Shown piece by piece: positions 3,497 through 40,178 of a DNA stretch of 64,000 bases (position 1 is its first letter; each line of letters starts with the position of its first letter). A program made the translations under genes and the position numbers. This DNA comes from Halorussus caseinilyticus (GTDB lineage: Archaea > Halobacteriota > Halobacteria > Halobacteriales > Haladaptataceae): positions 186,001-250,000 of the forward strand of contig NZ_CP119810.1 in assembly GCF_029338395.1 (NCBI RefSeq), read 5' to 3'. The notes below the pieces were generated by a model. The model saw only the letters and a list, made by a program, of their open reading frames with translations. It was not told the DNA's origin and did not search any database.

Positions 3497-6400
3497 TCAC
3501 TCCCCGCCGTCTCCCGCCCGTTCGACCACCGCAATCTCGTCGTCGTCCAGTCCGTAGAGTCGGTAGACGATTCGGTCGATTGCTTCTTCCAGCGTAGCGA
3601 CCGTATTATTAAGATTCTTCGCCCGTGCGCGAACCTCACGGTAGCGTGCAACCTCGTCGCTGACCGTCTCGGGGTCCGGCAGGGAAAGCGCCCGCAGGCG
3701 GTCAAGCGGGGTGTTCGTCTTGGTCGCGTACGCTCGGAACCCGGCGAACCCGCCGCCGCGTTCGACTGCGGCCGGGACGAAGGCTTCGAGTAGCGTGCGC
3801 TCGGTCTCACCGAGATTCCGGAACCGGAGCGCGGGAATCGGGTCGGTCTCGACGTACCCCCACCGGTCGGTCTCGGCGTCGTCGCGTTCGGCGTCGTCGG
3901 GTTTGTAGCGCGCCGTTGTCGAGACGACGAGCGCATCGCCGTCGCCGTCCCGACGGACCTCCACGTCGCCGATTTTGAGCCCCTCGCGGTCGGCGCTCGC
4001 GTCGGCCAGCACCGAGTCTTCGACGCCCGACGCCGCGACTCCGATTTCGCCCAGCGTCGGTCCGGACTCCGCTTCGGCCCGCTTCGCGGCGTCTCCGAGG
4101 TGGTCCAACACGTCGAGGTTCAGTTCTGCTCGCTCCTCGCGGAGGGTCCGGACGCGTTCGGTCAGGGTCGCCACGGCCGACTCGGGGTCGGCGGGCACGT
4201 CTTCGACCCCCGCTTTCGCGGCGATGTCGGCGACTTCGCCGTCTTCGACCGGCGCGCTGTCGGGGTCTGGCACGGGCATCCGCTCGGTGAACATCGGCTT
4301 GAATCGGAGGTAGTCGCCGTTGACGTGGGTGCCGCCGTACACCTGCCGGAAGTAGGTCGCCACGAACGCCGAGTTGAACACCCCGAGCAGGTACCGGAGC
4401 GACCGGTCGGACTCCTCGCGGAGTCGGACGCTGTAGAGGGTGTTGAGCGCGTAGTAGTCCGCGTCGTCGTACACCGCGACCGGCCGGTCGCTGATGTCCC
4501 GGACCAGCAGTTTCTCGCCCTCGAAGCAGTCGGGTCGCCGGAGGTCGGCGTAGTCGCCCGTCGAGCGCTCGACCAGCGAGTCGTCGTAGCGAATCCACGT
4601 CCCGTCCCAGTCGAGGCGGTACCTATCGACGGACTTCCCGTCTACGACTCTTCGGTACGGAGAGTCGCCGCCCCCGGAAACGTCGGGGTCGTCGGTCAGC
4701 AGTTTCTCGCGGACGTTGCCGGTGTGGACGCCCTCGGTCAGGGTAACGTGGTCGCCGAGTCGGTCGCAGTTCGCCAGCACGTCGGCCGCAACGTCGGCGA
4801 AGTCGGGGTCCAAGTCGAGGGGGACGACCCGGCCGCCGAGTCGGTCCACGAACGACCGGGTGACGGCCGTCGTCCGGGAAGCAGTCAGCGCGCGTTCGTC
4901 GTCGGGCGTGCGGACCCGAATCTCGGCGTCGTCCGGCGACGACACGTCGTCGCCGGACGACGCTTCCCCGAAGGTGACGACCACCGGATAGATGTCGGCG
5001 TCGGGGAACACGTCGAGGTTCGAGGCGTCAAGCACCTCGCAGTGACCCCGGTCGTCGAGCAACAGGTCCCGGAGCGGTCGGCCGTACTCGGTCGTCGTCC
5101 ACTTGTTCGGGACGACCAGCGAGACCCGGCGGCCGAGGTCGGCCGCGAGTTCCACGAACGGGACGTATAGGTCGTACGAACCCTGTGCCGTCCGGTACTC
5201 CTCGGAGTAGAACTCCTTGCGGTCGTCGGGGAGGTTCCGACTCCGGACGTAGGGCGGGTTGCCGACCACGGCGTCGAACCCCGCGTCGGTCTCGGTCTTC
5301 GGCGACCCCTCTTCGTCGTAGAACACCTCCGGGAAGGCGAGTTTCCAGTGGAAGAAATCGCGGGACTCGGCCACCTGCTGGGCGTCCTCGAACCACGTCT
5401 GGTCGGCAAACCTCTCCCACGCCCCGGCGTCGTCCAAGGCCCCACCCATCCGCTCGTAGGCATCGGAGGGAACGTCGAGACCGAACCGCTCGGCGGCGTG
5501 TACGTTCGCCATCCGCGTGAGTCGGCGTCGGAGGTCGTCGCGCCGGATTTCGGCGTACTTGCGCTCCATCTGCTTCACGTCCGAGAGCGTCTCGTTCTCC
5601 AAGGCCGCGAACTCCCGGTAGGCGTCCATCAGGTCGCCGATTGCGTTGGCGCGGGTCGCACCGAACTCGGCCAGCGTCGCGTTCGGGCCGGTGTCGCGGG
5701 CCAACGCCTCGACTTCGGCCACGTCGGTCCCGGCCAGCGAGTCGCCGCGCTTGAGGTGGTGGTCGAGGAACGCGAGCGGTTGCTCGGCCGCCAGCGTCCG
5801 AAGCCACAGCGACACCTTCGCCAGTTCGACCGCCATCCCGTTCTCGTCCACGCCGTAGATGCACTGCTGGGCGACCTGCCTGCGCGCCCAGTGGATGTCG
5901 CGGGCGTCGTCGGGTGAGACGGTCGTCCCGCCGGACAAGTCGGACCCGGCGGTCGGACGCTCGCCGTCCCCGGCAACGGGGTCGGTCCCGACCTGCCGTG
6001 CCTCCACGACGGCCCGAGCGAGGTACTCGACGGTCTTGACGAGGAAGTGGCCGCTCCCCATCGCGGGGTCCAGCACCGAGAGGTCGAACACGCGTTCGGC
6101 GAACGCCTCGGCGTAGTCGGGGTCCGCGGGGTCGAGGTCCGCCCGAATCTCGTCAAGTAGAGGTTCGAGAGTGCGCTCGACCACGTACTCCACGACGAAC
6201 TCGGGGGTGTAGTACGACCCCGTTGTCTTTCGCTTGCCGGTCTCGGTCGTGAGGTAGGCGTCACCGGGTTCGGCCCGCGCGACGGTCTCTTCGGGGTCGG
6301 CGTCGTCGGCGGCGACCCACTCCTGTTCGCCGTCCGCGCGCACCGCGGCCAGCGGCCGGTCGGCGATTTCGAGTTCGTACTCCAGCAGTCCCTCGTAGAT

Positions 6401-7714
6401 GCTCCCGAGGTGGCGCACGTCTAACGACGAGTAGTCCACGAACACCCGGCCCTCGCCCTCGCGGGCCGACTCCCGGCGAGTGAGCAGTTCGACCACCCGC
6501 GCGAGGTAGGTGTCGCCGACGGCGTGGGAATCGAGGAACGCGGCGGTGTCGTCCGGGTCGGCGTCGTCGGGATTCGTCTCGAACAGGCCGCCGTTGTACG
6601 CCGGGACGTGGAGGTCGTCTTCGGGGATTCCCTGCGCCTCGCTTCCCCGGTCCACGAGCGCGAACAACTCGTCTAGTCGGTCCCAGAGCGCGGTCTGCCA
6701 CGGCCGATAGATGGTGTCGTTCCTGTCCAACTCCTCGGCGACCCGTCGCTTGAGCGTGTTCAGACTGAACCGCTTGCGATACACCTCGTTGTCGGTGTCC
6801 AGCAGGTTCCGTCCGTCGCTCTCGGCGTACAGCACGAAGATGAGCCTGTAGAGGTAGGTCAGCGACGCCTCGTAGACGGTATCGAGGTCGTCGGGTCCGA
6901 TGTCGTCGTCGCTCTCGACGAACCCCTGTGCGAGCAACGAGAGCGCCTCGTAGACGTTCTCGCGGAGGTCCTCGCTCAACTCCTCGGCGAAGACGTTGCT
7001 CTTGCGGTGGACTCGCTCTACGAACGGCCGGTCGGTCCCGAGGTGACTCGCGGGCATCGCCTCGGCGCTCGCCGTGCCGCCGAGGAACGCCTCCCGGCGG
7101 AAAAATAGGTAGAAGTACTTGAACTCCTCCCAGTCGCCGGTCGCCAGCAGTTTCGGCAGGTCGATTTCGTAGTAGGAGTCGAGGCGGTGGCTGGTCGGCC
7201 CGTGGTAGAGTCGCCACTTCCGGCCGTTGGTCAGGATGCCCCGGTCGAGACCCGTCGCGTCGAGGTAGACGTGAATCTGATAGCTCGGGTTGGTGAACTC
7301 GCGGTCGGTCCCGCCGTCGAGCGACTGGTCCCACCGCTCGGTGTCGGCGACTGCCAGCGCGTTCGCGTGGAACGACCGGCCGTCGCGCCGTCGCTCGACG
7401 GCGTTCTCGCGGGCGCGTTCGCTCCCGAACAGCGCGTAGTCGGGCCGAAGTCGCTCGCCGCGAATGGGTTCCCCGACTGCGGTCGTCAGTCCGAGTGTCT
7501 CGAACACGGGGTCGAGGAGGTTCTCGCGGAGTCGTCGCTCGTCGTACTCGGCCGCGCGGTCGGACTCGCGTCGGTAACAGTCCCGAATCTCCTCGTAGGC
7601 CGCCCGCACTTCCGCCTCGTCCGCGGCGTGCCAGTCGTCGGTCTCCGGAAGATGCTCGTCGAGATAGTAGTTCGAAAAGAGGTCCCGGTTTCGCCGATAA
7701 TTCAGCGCCTGCAT
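3497..7714 (-). CDS. Eco57I-type restriction-modification methylase (type IIG-like, fused nuclease-methylase)
   Basis: A 1405-aa single-chain R-M enzyme. Residues about 1-230 look like the PD-(D/E)XK nuclease region (RPDYALFG near residue 92). The middle carries the N6-adenine methylase core: KTTGSYYTPEFVVEYV, the SAM motif DPAMGSGHF near residue 550 and the catalytic NPPY in VVGNPPYVRS near residue 819. The last about 450 residues would hold target recognition plus a coiled C-terminus. Such proteins methylate adenine and may cut DNA outside the site. No separate R or S gene, BREX or DISARM partner is adjacent, so it acts alone here. At the expected nuclease ExK position the sequence reads VADTERW, so the lysine may be missing. 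Confidence 0.88.
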   Translation of the reverse strand: MQALNYRRNRDLFSNYYLDEHLPETDDWHAADEAEVRAAYEEIRDCYRRESDRAAEYDERRLRENLLDPVFETLGLTTAVGEPIRGERLRPDYALFGSERARENAVERRRDGRSFHANALAVADTERWDQSLDGGTDREFTNPSYQIHVYLDATGLDRGILTNGRKWRLYHGPTSHRLDSYYEIDLPKLLATGDWEEFKYFYLFFRREAFLGGTASAEAMPASHLGTDRPFVERVHRKSNVFAEELSEDLRENVYEALSLLAQGFVESDDDIGPDDLDTVYEASLTYLYRLIFVLYAESDGRNLLDTDNEVYRKRFSLNTLKRRVAEELDRNDTIYRPWQTALWDRLDELFALVDRGSEAQGIPEDDLHVPAYNGGLFETNPDDADPDDTAAFLDSHAVGDTYLARVVELLTRRESAREGEGRVFVDYSSLDVRHLGSIYEGLLEYELEIADRPLAAVRADGEQEWVAADDADPEETVARAEPGDAYLTTETGKRKTTGSYYTPEFVVEYVVERTLEPLLDEIRADLDPADPDYAEAFAERVFDLSVLDPAMGSGHFLVKTVEYLARAVVEARQVGTDPVAGDGERPTAGSDLSGGTTVSPDDARDIHWARRQVAQQCIYGVDENGMAVELAKVSLWLRTLAAEQPLAFLDHHLKRGDSLAGTDVAEVEALARDTGPNATLAEFGATRANAIGDLMDAYREFAALENETLSDVKQMERKYAEIRRDDLRRRLTRMANVHAAERFGLDVPSDAYERMGGALDDAGAWERFADQTWFEDAQQVAESRDFFHWKLAFPEVFYDEEGSPKTETDAGFDAVVGNPPYVRSRNLPDDRKEFYSEEYRTAQGSYDLYVPFVELAADLGRRVSLVVPNKWTTTEYGRPLRDLLLDDRGHCEVLDASNLDVFPDADIYPVVVTFGEASSGDDVSSPDDAEIRVRTPDDERALTASRTTAVTRSFVDRLGGRVVPLDLDPDFADVAADVLANCDRLGDHVTLTEGVHTGNVREKLLTDDPDVSGGGDSPYRRVVDGKSVDRYRLDWDGTWIRYDDSLVERSTGDYADLRRPDCFEGEKLLVRDISDRPVAVYDDADYYALNTLYSVRLREESDRSLRYLLGVFNSAFVATYFRQVYGGTHVNGDYLRFKPMFTERMPVPDPDSAPVEDGEVADIAAKAGVEDVPADPESAVATLTERVRTLREERAELNLDVLDHLGDAAKRAEAESGPTLGEIGVAASGVEDSVLADASADREGLKIGDVEVRRDGDGDALVVSTTARYKPDDAERDDAETDRWGYVETDPIPALRFRNLGETERTLLEAFVPAAVERGGGFAGFRAYATKTNTPLDRLRALSLPDPETVSDEVARYREVRARAKNLNNTVATLEEAIDRIVYRLYGLDDDEIAVVERAGDGGE
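4928..4961. repeat. Perfect 16-bp inverted repeat inside the methylase gene
   Basis: Arms 4928-4943 and 4946-4961 are exact complements separated by AC. The segment encodes a Ser/Asp-rich stretch (SSGDDVSSPDD, around residues 918-929), probably a tolerated surface-loop insertion. It resembles the intergenic hairpins listed elsewhere in the window. Confidence 0.8.
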
Positions 7715-8179
7715 ACGTTTGTAACCCTTGTGTCGGAAATTATCCTAGCTCTGAGCCATCTAACAAAAATAGTTTGTCATTTATGCCGACGGAGCTACGC
7801 CGCCGGACTCAAAGAGGGCTCTGGCTAGACGGATAGGCTCCCACTAGAACCTTAATTACGGGTTTCTTGGCCATGTTCTCATTTCTTATAGAATCTTTTC
7901 CATTTCCTTTATATATAGAAATATTGCTCTACCTTCGAAGGCGTCGGCGACTCCGGCGTGGAATTCGCCGAGCGATTCGTGGCCCGACGACGGGTTCTCC
8001 GGCGACTTCGCCACCGGCCGCGCCGCGTAGCAACCGGCCGAGATTATCAACTCGATACCACTCTCGTCGCCGGTCACGCGAAACCATCGCCGCGAGACCG
8101 GAGTCGGCGGTCACGGACTCGTCAGTCGCGTACCAGATTTGCAATAAAGACTAAATACGTATTCGTTGCTAAACCGGTA
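7715..8179. other. Intergenic region without a convincing gene
   Basis: This 465-nt gap lies between the divergent methylase and arylsulfotransferase-like genes. AT-rich patches at 7735-7785 and 7870-7925 could carry the methylase promoter. Between about 7886 and 8144 the minus strand has two overlapping open frames with protein-like composition (one containing ARPVAKSPENPSSGHES), perhaps a decayed or frameshifted small gene. No RNA gene was recognised. Confidence 0.4.
8151..8158 (+). promoter_or_regulatory. TATA element of arylsulfotransferase-like gene
   Basis: CTAAATAC sits 22-29 nt before the GTG at 8180, the spacing expected for a leaderless haloarchaeal transcript. This decides for the GTG start rather than an upstream in-frame ATG at 7958. 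Confidence 0.5.
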
Positions 8180-13191: not shown

Positions 13192-13256
13192 ATTGCGGGT
13201 GGCGAACGAGACCGTGAGAAAGGTTTATTTGGGCTATGGACGAAATATCACCCCCT

Positions 13257-13571
13257 GTTGCAGGACCCAGAAAACCCACCACGGGATTGAAACGCGTCTC
13301 GGTCCCGTTAATCCAGACGGTGAGGTCCCGAGTTGCAGGACCCAGAAAACCCACCACGGGATTGAAACTCTGATTTCATAGATTATGGGGTGCCCGGTGT
13401 CTCGCGTTGCAGGACCCAGAAAACCCACCACGGGATTGAAACACGACCGGCACGCTCCGGAACGCCTCGTTGAAACTGTTGCAGGACCCAGAAAACCCAC
13501 CACGGGATTGGAACATGGCAGACGACCCACCGCGTCCACCCGGAACACAAGGTCGCAGGACCCAGAAAACC
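13257..13571 (+). CRISPR. Small orphan CRISPR array, 37-nt repeat, four spacers
   Basis: Full repeats are at 13257-13293, 13332-13368, 13406-13442 and 13478-13514, with a truncated last copy at 13552-13571. The repeat begins GTTGCAGGACCC and ends ATTGAAAC, the classic CRISPR 3' tail. The fourth copy has one change (ATTGGAAC); the last keeps only the first 20 bases with one mismatch, which places the leader on the left. Spacers are 38, 37, 35 and 37 nt and all differ. The array ends 11 nt before the hemE stop, in the gap between convergent heme genes. No cas gene lies within the window, so any activity depends on trans-encoded Cas proteins. Confidence 0.92.
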
Positions 13572-25265: not shown

Positions 25266-25398
25266 AGAATTTCGCACGTCTGGCCTGCCGATAGTGAAGC
25301 TACGCCGCTGGCTCGCGGATTCGACACCGAAAATATCGGCCAAGATGTGAAATACATAAATTAAGTAAAATCCATATTATTTGTAACTTTAGCTATCA

Positions 25399-25443
25399 AA
25401 ATTTTTATTATGTAAGGGCATAACATACCAGACAAGGAGGTGA
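25399..25443 (+). promoter_or_regulatory. Promoter and Shine-Dalgarno of peptide gene copy A
   Basis: AT-rich ATTTTTATTA at 25401-25410 is a TATA element. The region to the ATG holds the conserved GGGCATAACATACCA and a near-perfect Shine-Dalgarno AAGGAGGTGA (25434-25443), five bases before the ATG. Such a strong ribosome site is unusual among leaderless haloarchaeal genes. Confidence 0.65.
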
Positions 25444-25448
25444 ACTCA

Positions 25449-25526
25449 ATGGAACTTTCGGACCTTACCGAGAAGCAGCACAGTGAAGGCGACTTCATCC
25501 CGTGCATTTGCTTCGTCGACGAGTAA
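25449..25526 (+). CDS. 25-aa peptide gene, copy A
   Basis: The peptide starts MELSDLTEKQ and ends PCICFVDE; a Cys-x-Cys pair sits near the C-terminus between hydrophobic residues, followed by an acidic tail. It is too short for usual gene callers. Support comes from the second copy 493 nt downstream: 77 of 78 coding bases are identical and the only change is synonymous (GAG/GAA), and the TATA, the GGGCATAACATACCA leader and the Shine-Dalgarno are also conserved. No family is recognised. The ELSDL start followed by a short Cys-containing end suggests a leader-core layout as in RiPP precursors, or a processed signal peptide; no modifying enzyme, protease or exporter is nearby. Confidence 0.7.
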   Translation: MELSDLTEKQHSEGDFIPCICFVDE

Positions 25527-25750
25527 CGTACTCCCGCAACTAACCATTTCTAAGAAGCGCGTGCGACCGTACGGAGATTCTCGGACAATCTGAACGACAG
25601 TCGCGTCACCGGAAATCAACACCGAGGATTCGTATCGGAAGTAAATTCTACGAGTGACATCGTTCCGTACGTCCGCTTGCTTGACGAACGAACCAACACT
25701 CGGCGTCCCGAACACGTATCCGAGATGTAGATAGCAGTATACGCCTCGAC

Positions 25751-25864
25751 ATGAAACAGCGACGAATCGTCTCCAGAGTACTCCCGATAGTTCTGCTCAC
25801 TACACTCTCAGTGCCCGAACGCCGGAATATTTCTAATTTGTGTATCTATGGACTCTCCCGTTAA
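25751..25864 (+). CDS. Possible remnant: 37-aa signal-peptide-like ORF
   Basis: Between the two peptide genes, an ATG ORF begins MKQRRIVSRVLPIVLLTTLS, basic then hydrophobic like an export signal, and stops after 37 codons. It may be the truncated start of a former exported protein or a chance ORF. There is no second copy and no clear ribosome site. Confidence 0.25.
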   Translation: MKQRRIVSRVLPIVLLTTLSVPERRNISNLCIYGLSR

Positions 25865-25892
25865 GTTGTTATTTATTATAGTAGCCATCGAA

Positions 25893-25935
25893 ATTTTTAT
25901 TATGTATGGGCATAACATACCAAACGAGGAGGTGA
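25893..25935 (+). promoter_or_regulatory. Promoter and Shine-Dalgarno of peptide gene copy B
   Basis: ATTTTTATTATG at about 25893-25904, the shared GGGCATAACATACCA block and the Shine-Dalgarno GAGGAGGTGA (25926-25935), six bases before the ATG, repeat the arrangement of copy A with few changes and a three-base insertion. Confidence 0.65.
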
Positions 25936-25941
25936 GAACTA

Positions 25942-26019
25942 ATGGAACTTTCGGACCTTACCGAGAAGCAGCACAGTGAAGGCGACTTCATCCCGTGCAT
26001 TTGCTTCGTCGACGAATAA
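25942..26019 (+). CDS. 25-aa peptide gene, copy B
   Basis: Encodes exactly the same 25-residue peptide as copy A (start MELSDLTEKQ, end PCICFVDE) with one synonymous base change in the last sense codon. The similarity continues a little past the stop (AACCATTTC...AGAAGC in both) and then ends, so the duplicated unit is about 160 nt including promoter and 3' end. Identity at protein level with conserved control signals argues that both copies are used. The surrounding 1 kb is clearly more AT-rich than the flanking genes, suggesting acquisition by transfer. Confidence 0.7.
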   Translation: MELSDLTEKQHSEGDFIPCICFVDE

Positions 26020-26056
26020 CGGCTTTTAACCAACCCATTTCCAGAAGCAACGTCAC

Positions 26057-26302: not shown

Positions 26303-26728
26303 ATGACCGTCGTCAGTATCTCGATGCCGGACGAACTACTCGACCGAATCGACGAGTTCGCCGACGAACACGGCTACACGGGGCGAAGCGAAGTGTTCCG
26401 CGAGGCCGGACGAAACCTGCTCGGGGAGTTCGAGGACAAGAAACTGGAGGACCGCGACCTGATGGGCGTCGTCACGGTCCTGTTCAGTTACGAGAACACG
26501 ACGGTCGAAGAGCGGATGATGCACCTCCGCCACGAGTACGACGGGTTGGTCACGTCGAACGTCCACAACCACGTCGGCGACCACTACTGCATGGAACTGT
26601 TCATTCTCGAAGGGAACCTCGAAGACATCTCCACGTTCGTCGGCAAGATTCGGGCCACTCAGGACACGCTCACGGTCGATTACTCCGTGATTCCGGTAGA
26701 CGAGGTTGGACCGCTCACGACAAGTTAG
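26303..26728 (+). CDS. nikR: NikR-type nickel-responsive ribbon-helix-helix regulator
   Basis: 141 aa. The N-terminal 45 residues form a ribbon-helix-helix DNA-binding domain ([28 protein letters not shown]). The C-terminal ACT-like domain keeps all four nickel ligands of E. coli NikR in register: His77, His88, His90 and Cys96 (in RHEYDG and [13 protein letters not shown]). In the family, nickel binding tightens operator binding and represses nickel uptake genes. No nickel transporter or hydrogenase is in the window, so targets are elsewhere or the gene regulates itself through the TTGGTA dyad. The leaderless promoter spacing supports the start. Confidence 0.88.
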
Positions 26729-37322: not shown

Positions 37323-40178
37323 CTACGACGCTCGCCGACCCAACCACGCGACGACGAGCAGTCCCGCGAGCGCCGCCTGCACGAACCCGAATCCGGGGCT
37401 TCCCCCCTCGGAAGTCGTCCCGACCCCGGACCCGGAGTCGCTTCCCGTCCGAGAGTCGTCCTTCAGTGCGGACTCCGAGGACCCGGCGGTAATCGTGACC
37501 GGGCCGACCGTCTGCTCGCGCCGGTCGTCCTGCCCGGCGAAGTAGTACCGCGCCTGCCCCGTAATCTCGTACGTGCCGGGTTCGTTTATCTGGAGGCGAA
37601 CTTGCAGGGTCTCGTCGTCGTCGGGCGTGACTTCGACGAACTTCGTGGACTTCGGGCTAGCCAGACTGCCGCCGCTGACTCCCGAAACCGAGACGCCCGT
37701 GTCGGGGAGGTCCAGTTCGAGTTTCGCGTTCAGGTTCTCGTCGTCCACGATGTTCGAGATTCTGAACGTGACGATGGCCGACTCCTCGCCCGCGACGACC
37801 GTCCCGCGATGCGAGGTGAGTTGGAAGTCCGCGTTCTTCTGGACTTCGACGACCTTCGTCGCGGTGTTGACGACGCCGCTGGAGTCGGTCACGCGGACCC
37901 GGACCCGGTGCTTGCCGCCCACCTCGAACGACGGTGCGACCTTCGACCCCGACGCCTCGAAGTCGCCGTCGTCGTCGGTGTCCCACTCGAACTCCACGTC
38001 CGAGTCGTCCGACGAGGCGGACAGTGGCACCTGCTGGCCGGTCTTGGGCCGGGTCACGTCGGTCGATACCGACACCGACGGGCGGTCCCGAACCGTCACG
38101 CTGTATCGCTTCGTCGCGGTGTCGCCGTCGCCGTCTTCGACGGTCAACTCGACGGTGTACTCGCCGGAGTCGGCGAACTCGTAGGAGACCGACTCGCCAC
38201 GCTTCTCGTTGCCGCCGTTGACCGTCCACCGGTAGGTTTCGACCCGACCGTCCGGGTCGCGGGACGCCGCGGCGTCGAACGTCACGACTTCCCCGATGGT
38301 GGGCGTCGGCGAACTCGGGTCGATGTCGGCGATGGGTTCCGTGTTCGCGTCCGCGAACACCGGGGTCAGCGACTTGTCGCCGGTCATCTCGACCGTAATC
38401 CGCTCGGAATCCCTGTCACCGGACGGGTAGTCGCCCTCCCAGTGGTCGAAGACGTTGCCCTCCGCCGGATTCGCCTCCAGCGTCACCTCCGTACCCCCCT
38501 CGTAGGTCCGGATTCCGCCGTAGGAACTCCCGGAGGGGGACACGTCCACGTCGCCCTCGGTCCCCGGAGACGCAACGTCGAGGTCGTACTCCGAGACTTC
38601 CTCCGCGAAGACGGGCGTCAACGACTTCGCCTCGTCCATCTCGACGGTAATCGTCTCGGAGTTCTCCTCGCCGTAGGGGTGGTCGCCCTCCCAGTGGTCG
38701 AACTTGTAGCCACTCTCCGGGTCGGCCTCCAAGGTCACGTCCGTCCCTTCCTCGTAGGTCTGGGTGACGATGCTGGTGTAGGTGTCGTAGGGCGGCGAGA
38801 GTTCCACGTCGCCGTTGCCCGAGGAGTCCACTTCGAGGTCGTACTCCGACACCTCCTCCACGAAGACGGGCGTCAGCGACTTGTCGCCGTCCATCTCGAC
38901 GGTAATCGTCTCGGAGTTCTCCTCGCCGTAGGGGTGGTCGCCCTCCCAGTGGTCGAACTTGTAGCCACTCTCCGGGTCGGCCTCCAAGGTCACGTCCGAC
39001 CCTTCCTCGTACTCGCGCGAGGCGTAACTACTGTAGGTGTCGTAGGGCGGTGAGACTTCGACTTCGCCGTTGCCCGAGGCGTCCACGTCGAGGTCGTACT
39101 CGGTCACCTCCTCCACGAAGACGGGCGTCAACGACTTCGCCTCGTCCATCTCGACGGTAATCGTCCGGGAGTCCTCTTCGCCGTAGGGGTGGTCGCCCTG
39201 CCAGTAGTCGAAGTTGTAGCCACTCTCCGGGTCGGCCTCTAAAGTCACGTCCGTCCCTTCCTCGTACTGGCGCGAGACGTAGCTACTGTAGGTGTCGTAG
39301 GGCGGCGAGAGTTGCACGTCGCCGTTGCCCGAGGCGTCCACGTCGAGGTCGTACTCGGTCGTCTTCTCCTCGAAGACGGGCGTCAGCGACCTGTCCTCGT
39401 CCATCTCCACCGTAATCGACTTCGAGTCCTCCTCGCCGTAGGGGTGGTCGCCCTCCCAGTGGTCGAACTTGTACCCCGAGAAGGGTTTGGCTTCGACCGT
39501 CACGTCGGTTCCGACCTCGTAGTTCTGGGACGTTCCGCCGTGGTAGGTCGAGTAGGGCGGACTCAGACTGACCCCGCCGTTCGAGGACGGAACGTCTACG
39601 TCCAGCGTGCGGGTCTTCGACTGGACATCGACCTCGTAGCGACGGACCTCGAAGTTCTGTTGGTCGTTCGTGTCGCCGTACTGGGGGGCGTTGAACTTCC
39701 GGTCGGGGTCGTCGTCGTCGGTCAGGGTGACGCGGGCGTAGAAGACGAACGTCCCGGCCTCTTGGGGAGTCACTCGGACCGACATCTGGCGGCGCGACCC
39801 GCCGTACCACGTCCCGGACCCGCCGACGCCCGCCTCGGCGAGGGCGTAGTCTGCGACCATCTCGTTGCCGTACTTGTCGTAGATGGTGTCGCCTTCCTCT
39901 CTGGTGAGGTCGAACGACAGGTCGGTGTAGACGCTATCGATGTGACTGTCGGTCTGGTGGCGCGGGAACGACACCGAGATAGTCGAGTACTTGCCCGCCG
40001 TCCCGCCGTAGTTCGCTCCTTCTACCGTGATAGTGAACTGTTCTCCGACCGTCACTTGACCCGGCGCGGCGACCCCGATGTCGGGGTCGGGTTCCTGATA
40101 ACTCTGAGTCGCACCGACGACCGGCGAGAGCGAAGAAAGAATCAGAAGGACGATAACGAGACCCGTACGAACTTCCAT
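37323..40178 (-). CDS. Surface protein with InlB B-type repeats, PKD domains and PGF-CTERM anchor
   Basis: 951 aa. Sec signal peptide MEVRTGLVIVLLILSSLSPVVG. Residues about 25-185 form a first beta domain. Five tandem repeats of about 84 residues follow (about 190-612), each with YDLDVDASGNG, GTDVTLEADPESGYKFDHWEGDHP and ITVEMD...SLTPVF, matching the divergent InlB B-repeat group. Two PKD-like domains (about 614-780) and a CARDB-like beta domain lead to a PGFGFVQAALAGLLVVAWLG helix and RR end, the PGF-CTERM signal. It is exported and surface-anchored, with a likely role in adhesion or cell-wall structure. Convergent with the SLC13 gene. Confidence 0.85.
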   Translation of the reverse strand: MEVRTGLVIVLLILSSLSPVVGATQSYQEPDPDIGVAAPGQVTVGEQFTITVEGANYGGTAGKYSTISVSFPRHQTDSHIDSVYTDLSFDLTREEGDTIYDKYGNEMVADYALAEAGVGGSGTWYGGSRRQMSVRVTPQEAGTFVFYARVTLTDDDDPDRKFNAPQYGDTNDQQNFEVRRYEVDVQSKTRTLDVDVPSSNGGVSLSPPYSTYHGGTSQNYEVGTDVTVEAKPFSGYKFDHWEGDHPYGEEDSKSITVEMDEDRSLTPVFEEKTTEYDLDVDASGNGDVQLSPPYDTYSSYVSRQYEEGTDVTLEADPESGYNFDYWQGDHPYGEEDSRTITVEMDEAKSLTPVFVEEVTEYDLDVDASGNGEVEVSPPYDTYSSYASREYEEGSDVTLEADPESGYKFDHWEGDHPYGEENSETITVEMDGDKSLTPVFVEEVSEYDLEVDSSGNGDVELSPPYDTYTSIVTQTYEEGTDVTLEADPESGYKFDHWEGDHPYGEENSETITVEMDEAKSLTPVFAEEVSEYDLDVASPGTEGDVDVSPSGSSYGGIRTYEGGTEVTLEANPAEGNVFDHWEGDYPSGDRDSERITVEMTGDKSLTPVFADANTEPIADIDPSSPTPTIGEVVTFDAAASRDPDGRVETYRWTVNGGNEKRGESVSYEFADSGEYTVELTVEDGDGDTATKRYSVTVRDRPSVSVSTDVTRPKTGQQVPLSASSDDSDVEFEWDTDDDGDFEASGSKVAPSFEVGGKHRVRVRVTDSSGVVNTATKVVEVQKNADFQLTSHRGTVVAGEESAIVTFRISNIVDDENLNAKLELDLPDTGVSVSGVSGGSLASPKSTKFVEVTPDDDETLQVRLQINEPGTYEITGQARYYFAGQDDRREQTVGPVTITAGSSESALKDDSRTGSDSGSGVGTTSEGGSPGFGFVQAALAGLLVVAWLGRRAS
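38343..39611 (-). repeat. Five tandem about 252-bp repeats in surface gene
   Basis: The nucleotide units encoding the B-type repeats are highly alike, units 3 and 4 being nearly identical over about 100 bases around the YKFDHWEGDHPYGEENSE-coding part, so they arose by recent tandem duplication or are kept alike by recombination. Confidence 0.75.

What the first reader, a model, noticed from the sequence alone, without database searches (positions are those of the whole stretch)
25399..26019. Two identical 25-aa peptide genes with their own promoters in an AT-rich island
Seen: two ORFs (25449-25526 and 25942-26019) encode the same peptide, with 77 of 78 coding bases equal and the one change synonymous. 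The TATA element, a shared GGGCATAACATACCA segment and near-perfect Shine-Dalgarno sequences are also kept. The peptide begins MELSDLTEKQ and ends PCICFVDE. Inference: duplicate genes with kept control signals imply use. A leader-like start with a short Cys-x-Cys core and acidic tail resembles a RiPP or peptide-pheromone precursor, but a small regulator or toxin is also possible. No enzyme or exporter is adjacent.
Basis: partly seen in the sequence, partly recalled or inferred. Interest (0 to 1): 0.82.

Follow-up and report, generated by a model that had tools for sequence, protein, structure and literature searches.

The report
Triplicated orphan 25-residue peptide gene
A salt-loving archaeon (Halorussus) carries three copies of a tiny gene for an almost identical 25-amino-acid peptide that no other searched genome has; it is built and duplicated like the raw peptides that cells chemically convert into signals or antibiotics, but no converting enzyme sits beside it, so its job is unproven.

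Summary
In detail: two 25-aa ORFs encode the same peptide, differ at 1 of 78 bases, and share TATA-like DNA, GGGCATAACATACCA and a GGAGGTGA Shine-Dalgarno. Sequence conservation tracks the ORF and its Shine-Dalgarno, not the flanks (dN/dS about 0.14-0.19, few sites), so these are very probably translated genes. No homologue was found in 17 other Halorussus genomes, several hundred haloarchaea, plasmids, phages or viral contigs, nor in Pfam, NCBIfam, PHROGs or Rfam. No RiPP enzyme or exporter is adjacent at either locus. However, the only other tandem short-ORF pair with this architecture found in about 1.2 Mb of the genome encodes 30-aa peptides beside two SagB-type peptide-maturation dehydrogenases; H. 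salilacus has a related SagB pair with a 29-aa Cys-containing peptide and a MATE exporter. The genome's streptolysin-S-like TOMM cluster has its own, unrelated precursors. Best reading: an orphan, multi-copy precursor of a modified or signalling peptide processed in trans (about 0.4). An unmodified regulatory micropeptide is a close rival.

The parts
25449..25526 (+). Peptide gene copy 1: MELSDLTEKQHSEGDFIPCICFVDE, stop TAA
25942..26019 (+). Peptide gene copy 2: same 25 aa, one synonymous difference (last codon GAA)
25436..25443 (+). Shine-Dalgarno GGAGGTGA of copy 1, 5 nt before ATG
25928..25935 (+). Shine-Dalgarno GGAGGTGA of copy 2, 6 nt before ATG
25416..25430 (+). GGGCATAACATACCA between TATA-like element and Shine-Dalgarno, copy 1; possible regulator site or TSS-proximal element (inference)
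25908..25922 (+). GGGCATAACATACCA, copy 2
25400..25413 (+). TATA-like AT-rich element (AATTTTTATTATGT), copy 1; promoter role inferred
25892..25905 (+). TATA-like AT-rich element (AATTTTTATTATGT), copy 2; promoter role inferred
25377..25528 (+). Repeated cassette, copy 1 (upstream block, Shine-Dalgarno, ORF); flanks outside not conserved
25869..26021 (+). Repeated cassette, copy 2

Best explanation
The window holds two members of a three-gene family encoding a 25-aa, acidic, translated peptide specific to this Halorussus genome among those searched. The most likely mechanism: each gene is transcribed from its own AT-rich promoter and translated from a near-perfect Shine-Dalgarno. The peptide has an acidic N-terminal leader-like half (MELSDLTE...EGD) and a hydrophobic Cys-x-Cys C-terminal half (FIPCICFVDE). 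The C-terminal half would be modified and/or cleaved by enzymes encoded elsewhere and exported as a signal or antagonist, that is, an orphan RiPP-like precursor acting in trans. Shown: three copies, ORF- and Shine-Dalgarno-centred conservation, AT-rich islands absent at syntenic sites, architectural match to SagB-associated peptide genes. Inferred: translation, promoter function, modification, export and biological role.
For: Three copies on two replicons. Conservation is centred on Shine-Dalgarno plus ORF: 90-91% over about 95 bp for copy 3, flanks at background. dN/dS is 0.051/0.26 and 0.051/0.37 against copy 3 and 0/0.08 between copies 1 and 2. The only other genes of this build found by the exact-SD genome scan (43 matches; one 14-aa ORF is also AT-rich) are a tandem pair of 30-aa peptides on C3 (MTNNTDDAMEAVTEEVDDDDLFVAEPYVVS and ...SDDDLFVAEPYVQS). 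They sit beside two SagB-type 'peptide maturation' dehydrogenases. Their six base differences fall in codons 17 and 29 and the stop, none synonymous within the peptide. H. salilacus has a related SagB pair beside a 29-aa peptide with the same Shine-Dalgarno, MSDETAEAWEMNEIESEKRACTLTCDPTN, and a MATE exporter. In about 1.2 Mb of this genome the window pair and the C3 pair are the only dispersed tandem repeats of at least 60 exact nt outside CRISPR arrays and long repetitive genes. RiPP precursors lying far from their synthetase are known (prochlorosins, PMC10783134).
Against: No modification enzyme, protease or exporter of RiPP type is adjacent at the window locus or within about 5 kb of copy 3. 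No further YcaO/SagB/SagC, nor any radical-SAM CX3CX2C protein over 200 aa, was found on C2-C5 or the parts of C1 held; most of C1 was not scanned. Sequence similarity to the C3 and H. salilacus peptides or to haloarchaeal TOMM precursors is not significant after correction. The genome's TOMM cluster has its own Cys-rich precursors, so it does not need this peptide. No family hit in Pfam, NCBIfam or PHROGs. The peptide is absent from all related genomes searched.
Confidence: 0.4

Rival explanations
1. An unmodified regulatory or signalling micropeptide: the linear 25-mer (or its C-terminal hydrophobic part) binds a protein partner or acts as a pheromone without RiPP-type modification. Extra copies raise dosage or add different regulation (copies 1 and 2 share a 15-nt promoter element that copy 3 lacks).
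For: Translation signals and coding constraint; no enzyme adjacent; copies 1/2 share a promoter element not shared by copy 3.
Against: No partner gene co-occurs next to both loci; neighbours are NikR-like plus a hybrid histidine kinase at one locus and an NAD-dependent epimerase plus a small HTH protein at the other. The architecture matches SagB-associated peptides better than any known regulator class.
Confidence: 0.33
2. A small Cys-x-Cys metal-binding peptide linked to the adjacent NikR-family regulator (26303-26728), for example a metal buffer or sensor co-factor.
For: PF08753 NikR_C plus RHH_1 protein 284 bp downstream; CxC motif identical in all three copies.
Against: The NikR-like gene is conserved in 16 of 18 Halorussus genomes whereas the peptide is in one. 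Copy 3 has no metal gene within about 5 kb. The GGGCATAACATACCA element shows no match near the NikR gene.
Confidence: 0.08
3. A small mobile or recombinogenic DNA cassette (about 95-150 bp) whose ORF is incidental or no longer functional.
For: Copy 3 lies in a roughly 430-bp segment absent at the same site in relatives; flanks of the three copies are unrelated; the island is AT-rich.
Against: Conserved-block edges coincide with Shine-Dalgarno and stop codon, all three frames are open with the same stop, and dN/dS against copy 3 is well below 1. No inverted-repeat ends or further copies were seen.
Confidence: 0.12
4. A type I-like toxin or other intracellular growth-inhibitory peptide kept in several copies.
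For: Multi-copy very short ORFs in intergenic DNA are typical of bacterial type I toxins such as Ibs and Ldr (own knowledge).
Against: The sequence is acidic with only an 8-residue hydrophobic stretch, not a membrane helix; no structured RNA or Rfam match was found.
Confidence: 0.04

Closest known systems
SagB-pair-associated short peptides of Halorussus (this genome C3, L156; H. salilacus, L178)
   Same: 25-30 aa ORF, GGAGGTGA 5-6 nt before ATG, AT-rich upstream DNA, acidic N-terminal half; tandem duplication on C3.
   Different: Those sit next to two SagB-type dehydrogenases (and a MATE exporter in H. salilacus); the window peptides do not. No significant sequence similarity.
Streptolysin-S-like TOMM (azole peptide) precursors, e.g. 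MKLELETETDDGVAPIAGGVSTCCCCCTTCSGSSTSCTV at C1 of this genome
   Same: Short, acidic leader, Cys in the C-terminal half, more than one precursor copy per genome.
   Different: TOMM precursors are 39-44 aa with a Cys/Ser/Thr-rich core beside YcaO, SagC, SagB, a CAAX-type protease and an ABC exporter; the window peptide has two Cys only and no such neighbours.
Prochlorosin/synechococsin-type precursors scattered in trans (PMC10783134)
   Same: Precursor genes can lie far from the modifying enzyme.
   Different: Those have conserved leaders ending in Gly-Gly and very many copies; LanM was not tested for here on most of C1.
Haloarchaeal class II lanthipeptides (PMC12144867; LanM mainly in Halorussus and Haloferax)
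   Same: Halorussus is a rich source of RiPPs; Cys-containing core.
   Different: Lanthionine needs Ser/Thr plus Cys in the core; FIPCICFVDE has no Ser or Thr.

Membership tests
RiPP precursor (general) | Short translated precursor gene | tested here: inconclusive
   Coding constraint, Shine-Dalgarno and three copies point to translation; no expression data.
RiPP precursor (general) | Modification enzyme, protease or exporter in the same gene cluster | tested here: not met
   No such gene among 10 flanking window proteins nor around copy 3.
RiPP precursor (general) | Post-translationally modified core peptide | not testable with these tools
   Needs mass spectrometry.
TOMM / linear azol(in)e peptide precursor | YcaO cyclodehydratase with SagC and SagB nearby | tested here: not met
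   Cluster exists in the genome, about 42 kb from copy 3, but carries its own precursors.
TOMM / linear azol(in)e peptide precursor | Leader similar to known haloarchaeal TOMM precursors | tested here: not met
   Best of 12 comparisons P = 0.007 against one G004 peptide, not significant after correction; P = 0.24-0.47 against this genome's own TOMM precursor.
SagB-pair peptide family (C3 / H. salilacus) | Adjacent pair of SagB-type dehydrogenases | tested here: not met
   Only on C3 in the DNA held.
SagB-pair peptide family (C3 / H. salilacus) | 25-30 aa ORF with GGAGGTGA, AT-rich upstream DNA | tested here: met
Lanthipeptide precursor | Ser/Thr plus Cys in core | tested here: not met
   C-terminal half GDFIPCICFVDE lacks Ser and Thr.
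Known curated peptide or protein family | Match to a Pfam, NCBIfam or PHROG model | tested here: not met
   No hit at E up to 10; 25 aa is short for profile detection.
Structured or regulatory RNA instead of peptide | Rfam match or unusually stable fold | tested here: not met
   Rfam none; z = -0.56, -1.80 and -0.13 on the sense strand.

The most novel reading that the evidence does not exclude
A recently emerged, genome-specific archaeal RiPP or pheromone precursor family in which precursor genes spread as about 100-150-bp promoter-SD-ORF cassettes across replicons while the maturation enzymes (possibly a YcaO-independent SagB-type dehydrogenase pair) act in trans.
Probability: 0.12. Interest if true: 0.7.

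Novelty: new member of a known kind. Interest (0 to 1): 0.42.

Why it matters
If translated and matured, it would be a tiny orphan peptide natural product or signal from an archaeon, a domain with few characterised peptides. It would also show that archaeal precursor genes can be scattered away from their enzymes and so escape cluster-based genome mining. The comparison also exposes an unusual two-SagB-plus-short-peptide module in Halorussus that can be tested directly.

Tried and rejected
Homologue searches: 195 relatives, 391 genomes of the class, 392 of the order by degenerate pattern, family DNA search, plasmids and phages, three viral-contig patterns, 84,980-species contigs. Only chance hits; DFIPCICF also occurs in two hits resembling bacterial single-stranded-DNA-binding proteins and in unrelated frames, judged coincidence. 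Partial matches to the MELSDLTE-coding DNA at C1:289571-289696 are out-of-frame repeats in non-coding DNA, and one at C1:1919130 lies outside any short peptide gene. The fibronectin hit in the PDB is noise. Syntenic sites in relatives were inspected for diverged peptides: none. The hypothesis that the TOMM cluster on C1 (about 42 kb from copy 3) lacks its own precursor and uses this peptide was raised and rejected when two local precursors were found. A shared regulon through GGGCATAACATACCA was rejected: only one other 2-mismatch site in the genome. RNA-structure and Rfam readings were rejected. A LanC-like motif hit on C2 was a LUD-domain protein.

Full report
OBSERVATION. The two ORFs are exactly as described: 25449-25526 and 25942-26019 (+), both MELSDLTEKQHSEGDFIPCICFVDE, 77 of 78 bases identical, the one difference synonymous (GAG/GAA in the last codon). 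The preceding 67 nt are 85% identical and include GGGCATAACATACCA. That 15-mer has two perfect sites in the window and genome and only one other site within two mismatches genome-wide. GGAGGTGA followed by ATG after 2-8 nt occurs only at these two places in the window (0.06 expected). The in-frame GTG upstream of copy 1 lies inside the Shine-Dalgarno and is out of frame in copy 2, so ATG is the likely start.

The window lies on a 427-kb contig (C2) of a 4.39-Mb, five-contig genome. C2 resembles Halorussus megaplasmids. A third copy, MELSDLTEEQYGEGDFIPCICFVDE, lies on the 3.48-Mb contig at C1:467501-467575 (-) with its own GGAGGTGA and AT-rich upstream sequence. It sits between a conserved epimerase and a small HTH gene, in a segment of roughly 430 bp that is missing at the same site in other Halorussus. 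Upstream of the NikR-like gene the window island is likewise not conserved. The genes are therefore accessory and probably recent.

IS THE ORF THE UNIT? For copy 1 against copy 3, similarity runs from the Shine-Dalgarno to just beyond the stop (about 95 bp, 90-91%) and flanks are at background. For copies 1/2, the downstream flanks are not significantly similar, the upstream block shows 10 differences in 67 nt and the ORF 1 in 78 (Fisher P = 0.003). dN/dS is 0.051/0.26 and 0.051/0.37 against copy 3; the counts are tiny, so this is supportive, not proof. The replacements against copy 3 (K9E, H11Y, S12G) cluster in the middle; MELSDLTE and EGDFIPCICFVDE never change. Low synonymous divergence with diverged flanks means either cassette-like copying without flanks or gene conversion. 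No unusual RNA structure and no Rfam family.

DISTRIBUTION. No homologue in 195 relatives, 391 genomes of the class or 392 of the order by pattern, in plasmids or phages, in viral contigs or in 84,980-species contigs, beyond chance hits. No match in Pfam, NCBIfam or PHROGs. Diverged 25-aa peptides would escape these searches.

COMPARISON WITH PEPTIDE GENES OF THE SAME BUILD. A whole-genome scan for GGAGGTGA-N3-7-ATG gave 43 sites. Among the short ORFs in AT-rich DNA are the three copies, a 14-aa ORF at C1:2306091, and a tandem pair on C3 encoding MTNNTDDAMEAVTEEVDDDDLFVAEPYVVS and MTNNTDDAMEAVTEEVSDDDLFVAEPYVQS. These 30-aa genes sit beside two SagB-type dehydrogenases (NCBIfam TIGR04511/TIGR03605 hits), with a PhyH oxygenase, a phosphotriesterase-family protein and a carbamoyltransferase nearby. 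Their ORFs differ by six bases, all in codons 17 and 29 and the stop, with none synonymous inside the peptide, while flanks are only 62-67% identical. In genome G005 (its 342,099-bp contig has the length of the Halorussus salilacus plasmid NZ_CP099994.1) a related SagB pair (37% and 28% identical to one C3 SagB) lies beside a 29-aa peptide MSDETAEAWEMNEIESEKRACTLTCDPTN with the same Shine-Dalgarno and a MATE exporter. In about 1.2 Mb of this genome held as sequence, the window pair and the C3 pair are the only dispersed tandem exact repeats of 60 nt or more outside CRISPR arrays and long repetitive genes. This architectural match is the main support for a precursor role; there is no significant sequence similarity.

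THE TOMM CLUSTER. About 42 kb from copy 3 the main contig carries a streptolysin-S-like set: SagD-family YcaO, SagC-like protein, SagB, CAAX-type protease and ABC exporter parts, conserved in other haloarchaea. I considered that it might use the window peptide. It does not need to: two local precursors, MKLELETETDDGVAPIAGGVSTCCCCCTTCSGSSTSCTV and MKLELETETDSGVAPVTGGVSTCCCCCTCKGSSTSCTASK, lie in the cluster, with relatives in orthologous clusters. Their leaders do not resemble the window peptide.

NEIGHBOURS. Around the window pair: a gamma-glutamyltranspeptidase and an FG-GAP/Thr-rich protein upstream; a NikR-type regulator, a response-regulator/PAS/GAF/histidine-kinase protein, COX1, HTH_10 and GST proteins downstream. 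None is a RiPP enzyme or exporter. The NikR gene is conserved in 16 of 18 Halorussus genomes, the peptide in one, so a specific link is unlikely. No further YcaO/SagB/SagC, nor any CX3CX2C radical-SAM candidate over 200 aa, was found on C2-C5 and the parts of C1 held. Most of C1 remains unscanned.

CONCLUSION. The genes are very probably real and translated (inferred). The best-supported single reading is an orphan, multi-copy precursor peptide processed in trans (0.4), closely followed by an unmodified regulatory or signalling micropeptide (0.33). Precursors scattered away from their enzyme are known for prochlorosins (PMC10783134), and Halorussus is a major source of archaeal RiPP clusters (PMC12144867). 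Membership in any known RiPP class is not claimed: the cluster criterion was tested and not met.

Noticed in passing
L156:5170-5549 and 5630-7788 (G000:C3 about 121.1-123.8 kb); L178:9320-13129 (H. salilacus): Module of two adjacent SagB-type peptide-maturation dehydrogenases plus 29-30-aa peptide gene(s) with perfect Shine-Dalgarno, without YcaO in the neighbourhood inspected; with a MATE exporter in H. salilacus. A possible new archaeal RiPP type.
   Followed up: partly
L182:4638-13549 (G000:C1 about 421.6-430.5 kb); L212-L219: Streptolysin-S-like TOMM clusters in haloarchaea (SagB, SagC, YcaO, CAAX-type protease, ABC exporter) with Cys/Ser/Thr-rich precursors such as MKLELETETDDGVAPIAGGVSTCCCCCTTCSGSSTSCTV.
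   Followed up: partly
L221:12322 (-) and L222:7541 (+): 40-aa TOMM precursor candidates MELTTETDETTEEMNGGCSGTDYP[IT]WGY[ED]CQSLS... beside sagB/sagC in two other Halorussus genomes.
   Followed up: no
13250-13571: Small CRISPR-like array, about five copies of a 37-nt repeat GTTGCAGGACCCAGAAAACCCACCACGGGATTGAAAC (last copy partial) with 72-75 nt spacing, beside heme-biosynthesis-like genes.
   Followed up: no
G000 contigs C3, C4, C5 (loci L248-L250, L254, L255, L261, L264, L269): The same repeats and ORFs recur near both ends of these contigs, suggesting circular replicons assembled with redundant overlapping ends; large CRISPR-like arrays on C3 and C4.
   Followed up: no
38606-39360: Long tandem repeats of 255/510 bp inside the InlB-B-repeat/PKD-type surface protein gene (37323-40178, -).
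   Followed up: no
L185:1081 (+): 77-aa Cys-rich peptide with signal-like N-terminus (MTLQTAKVLLVATVVLTTFAAG...CGGAGGCSDPEVTYC) about 6 kb from a TOMM cluster in another Halorussus genome.
   Followed up: no
L275:7105 (+) (G000:C1 about 2306.1 kb): 14-aa ORF MEETDNHGSSTSGP with GGAGGTGA and an AT-rich upstream region; a second GGAGGTGAGAACG follows shortly downstream.
   Followed up: no
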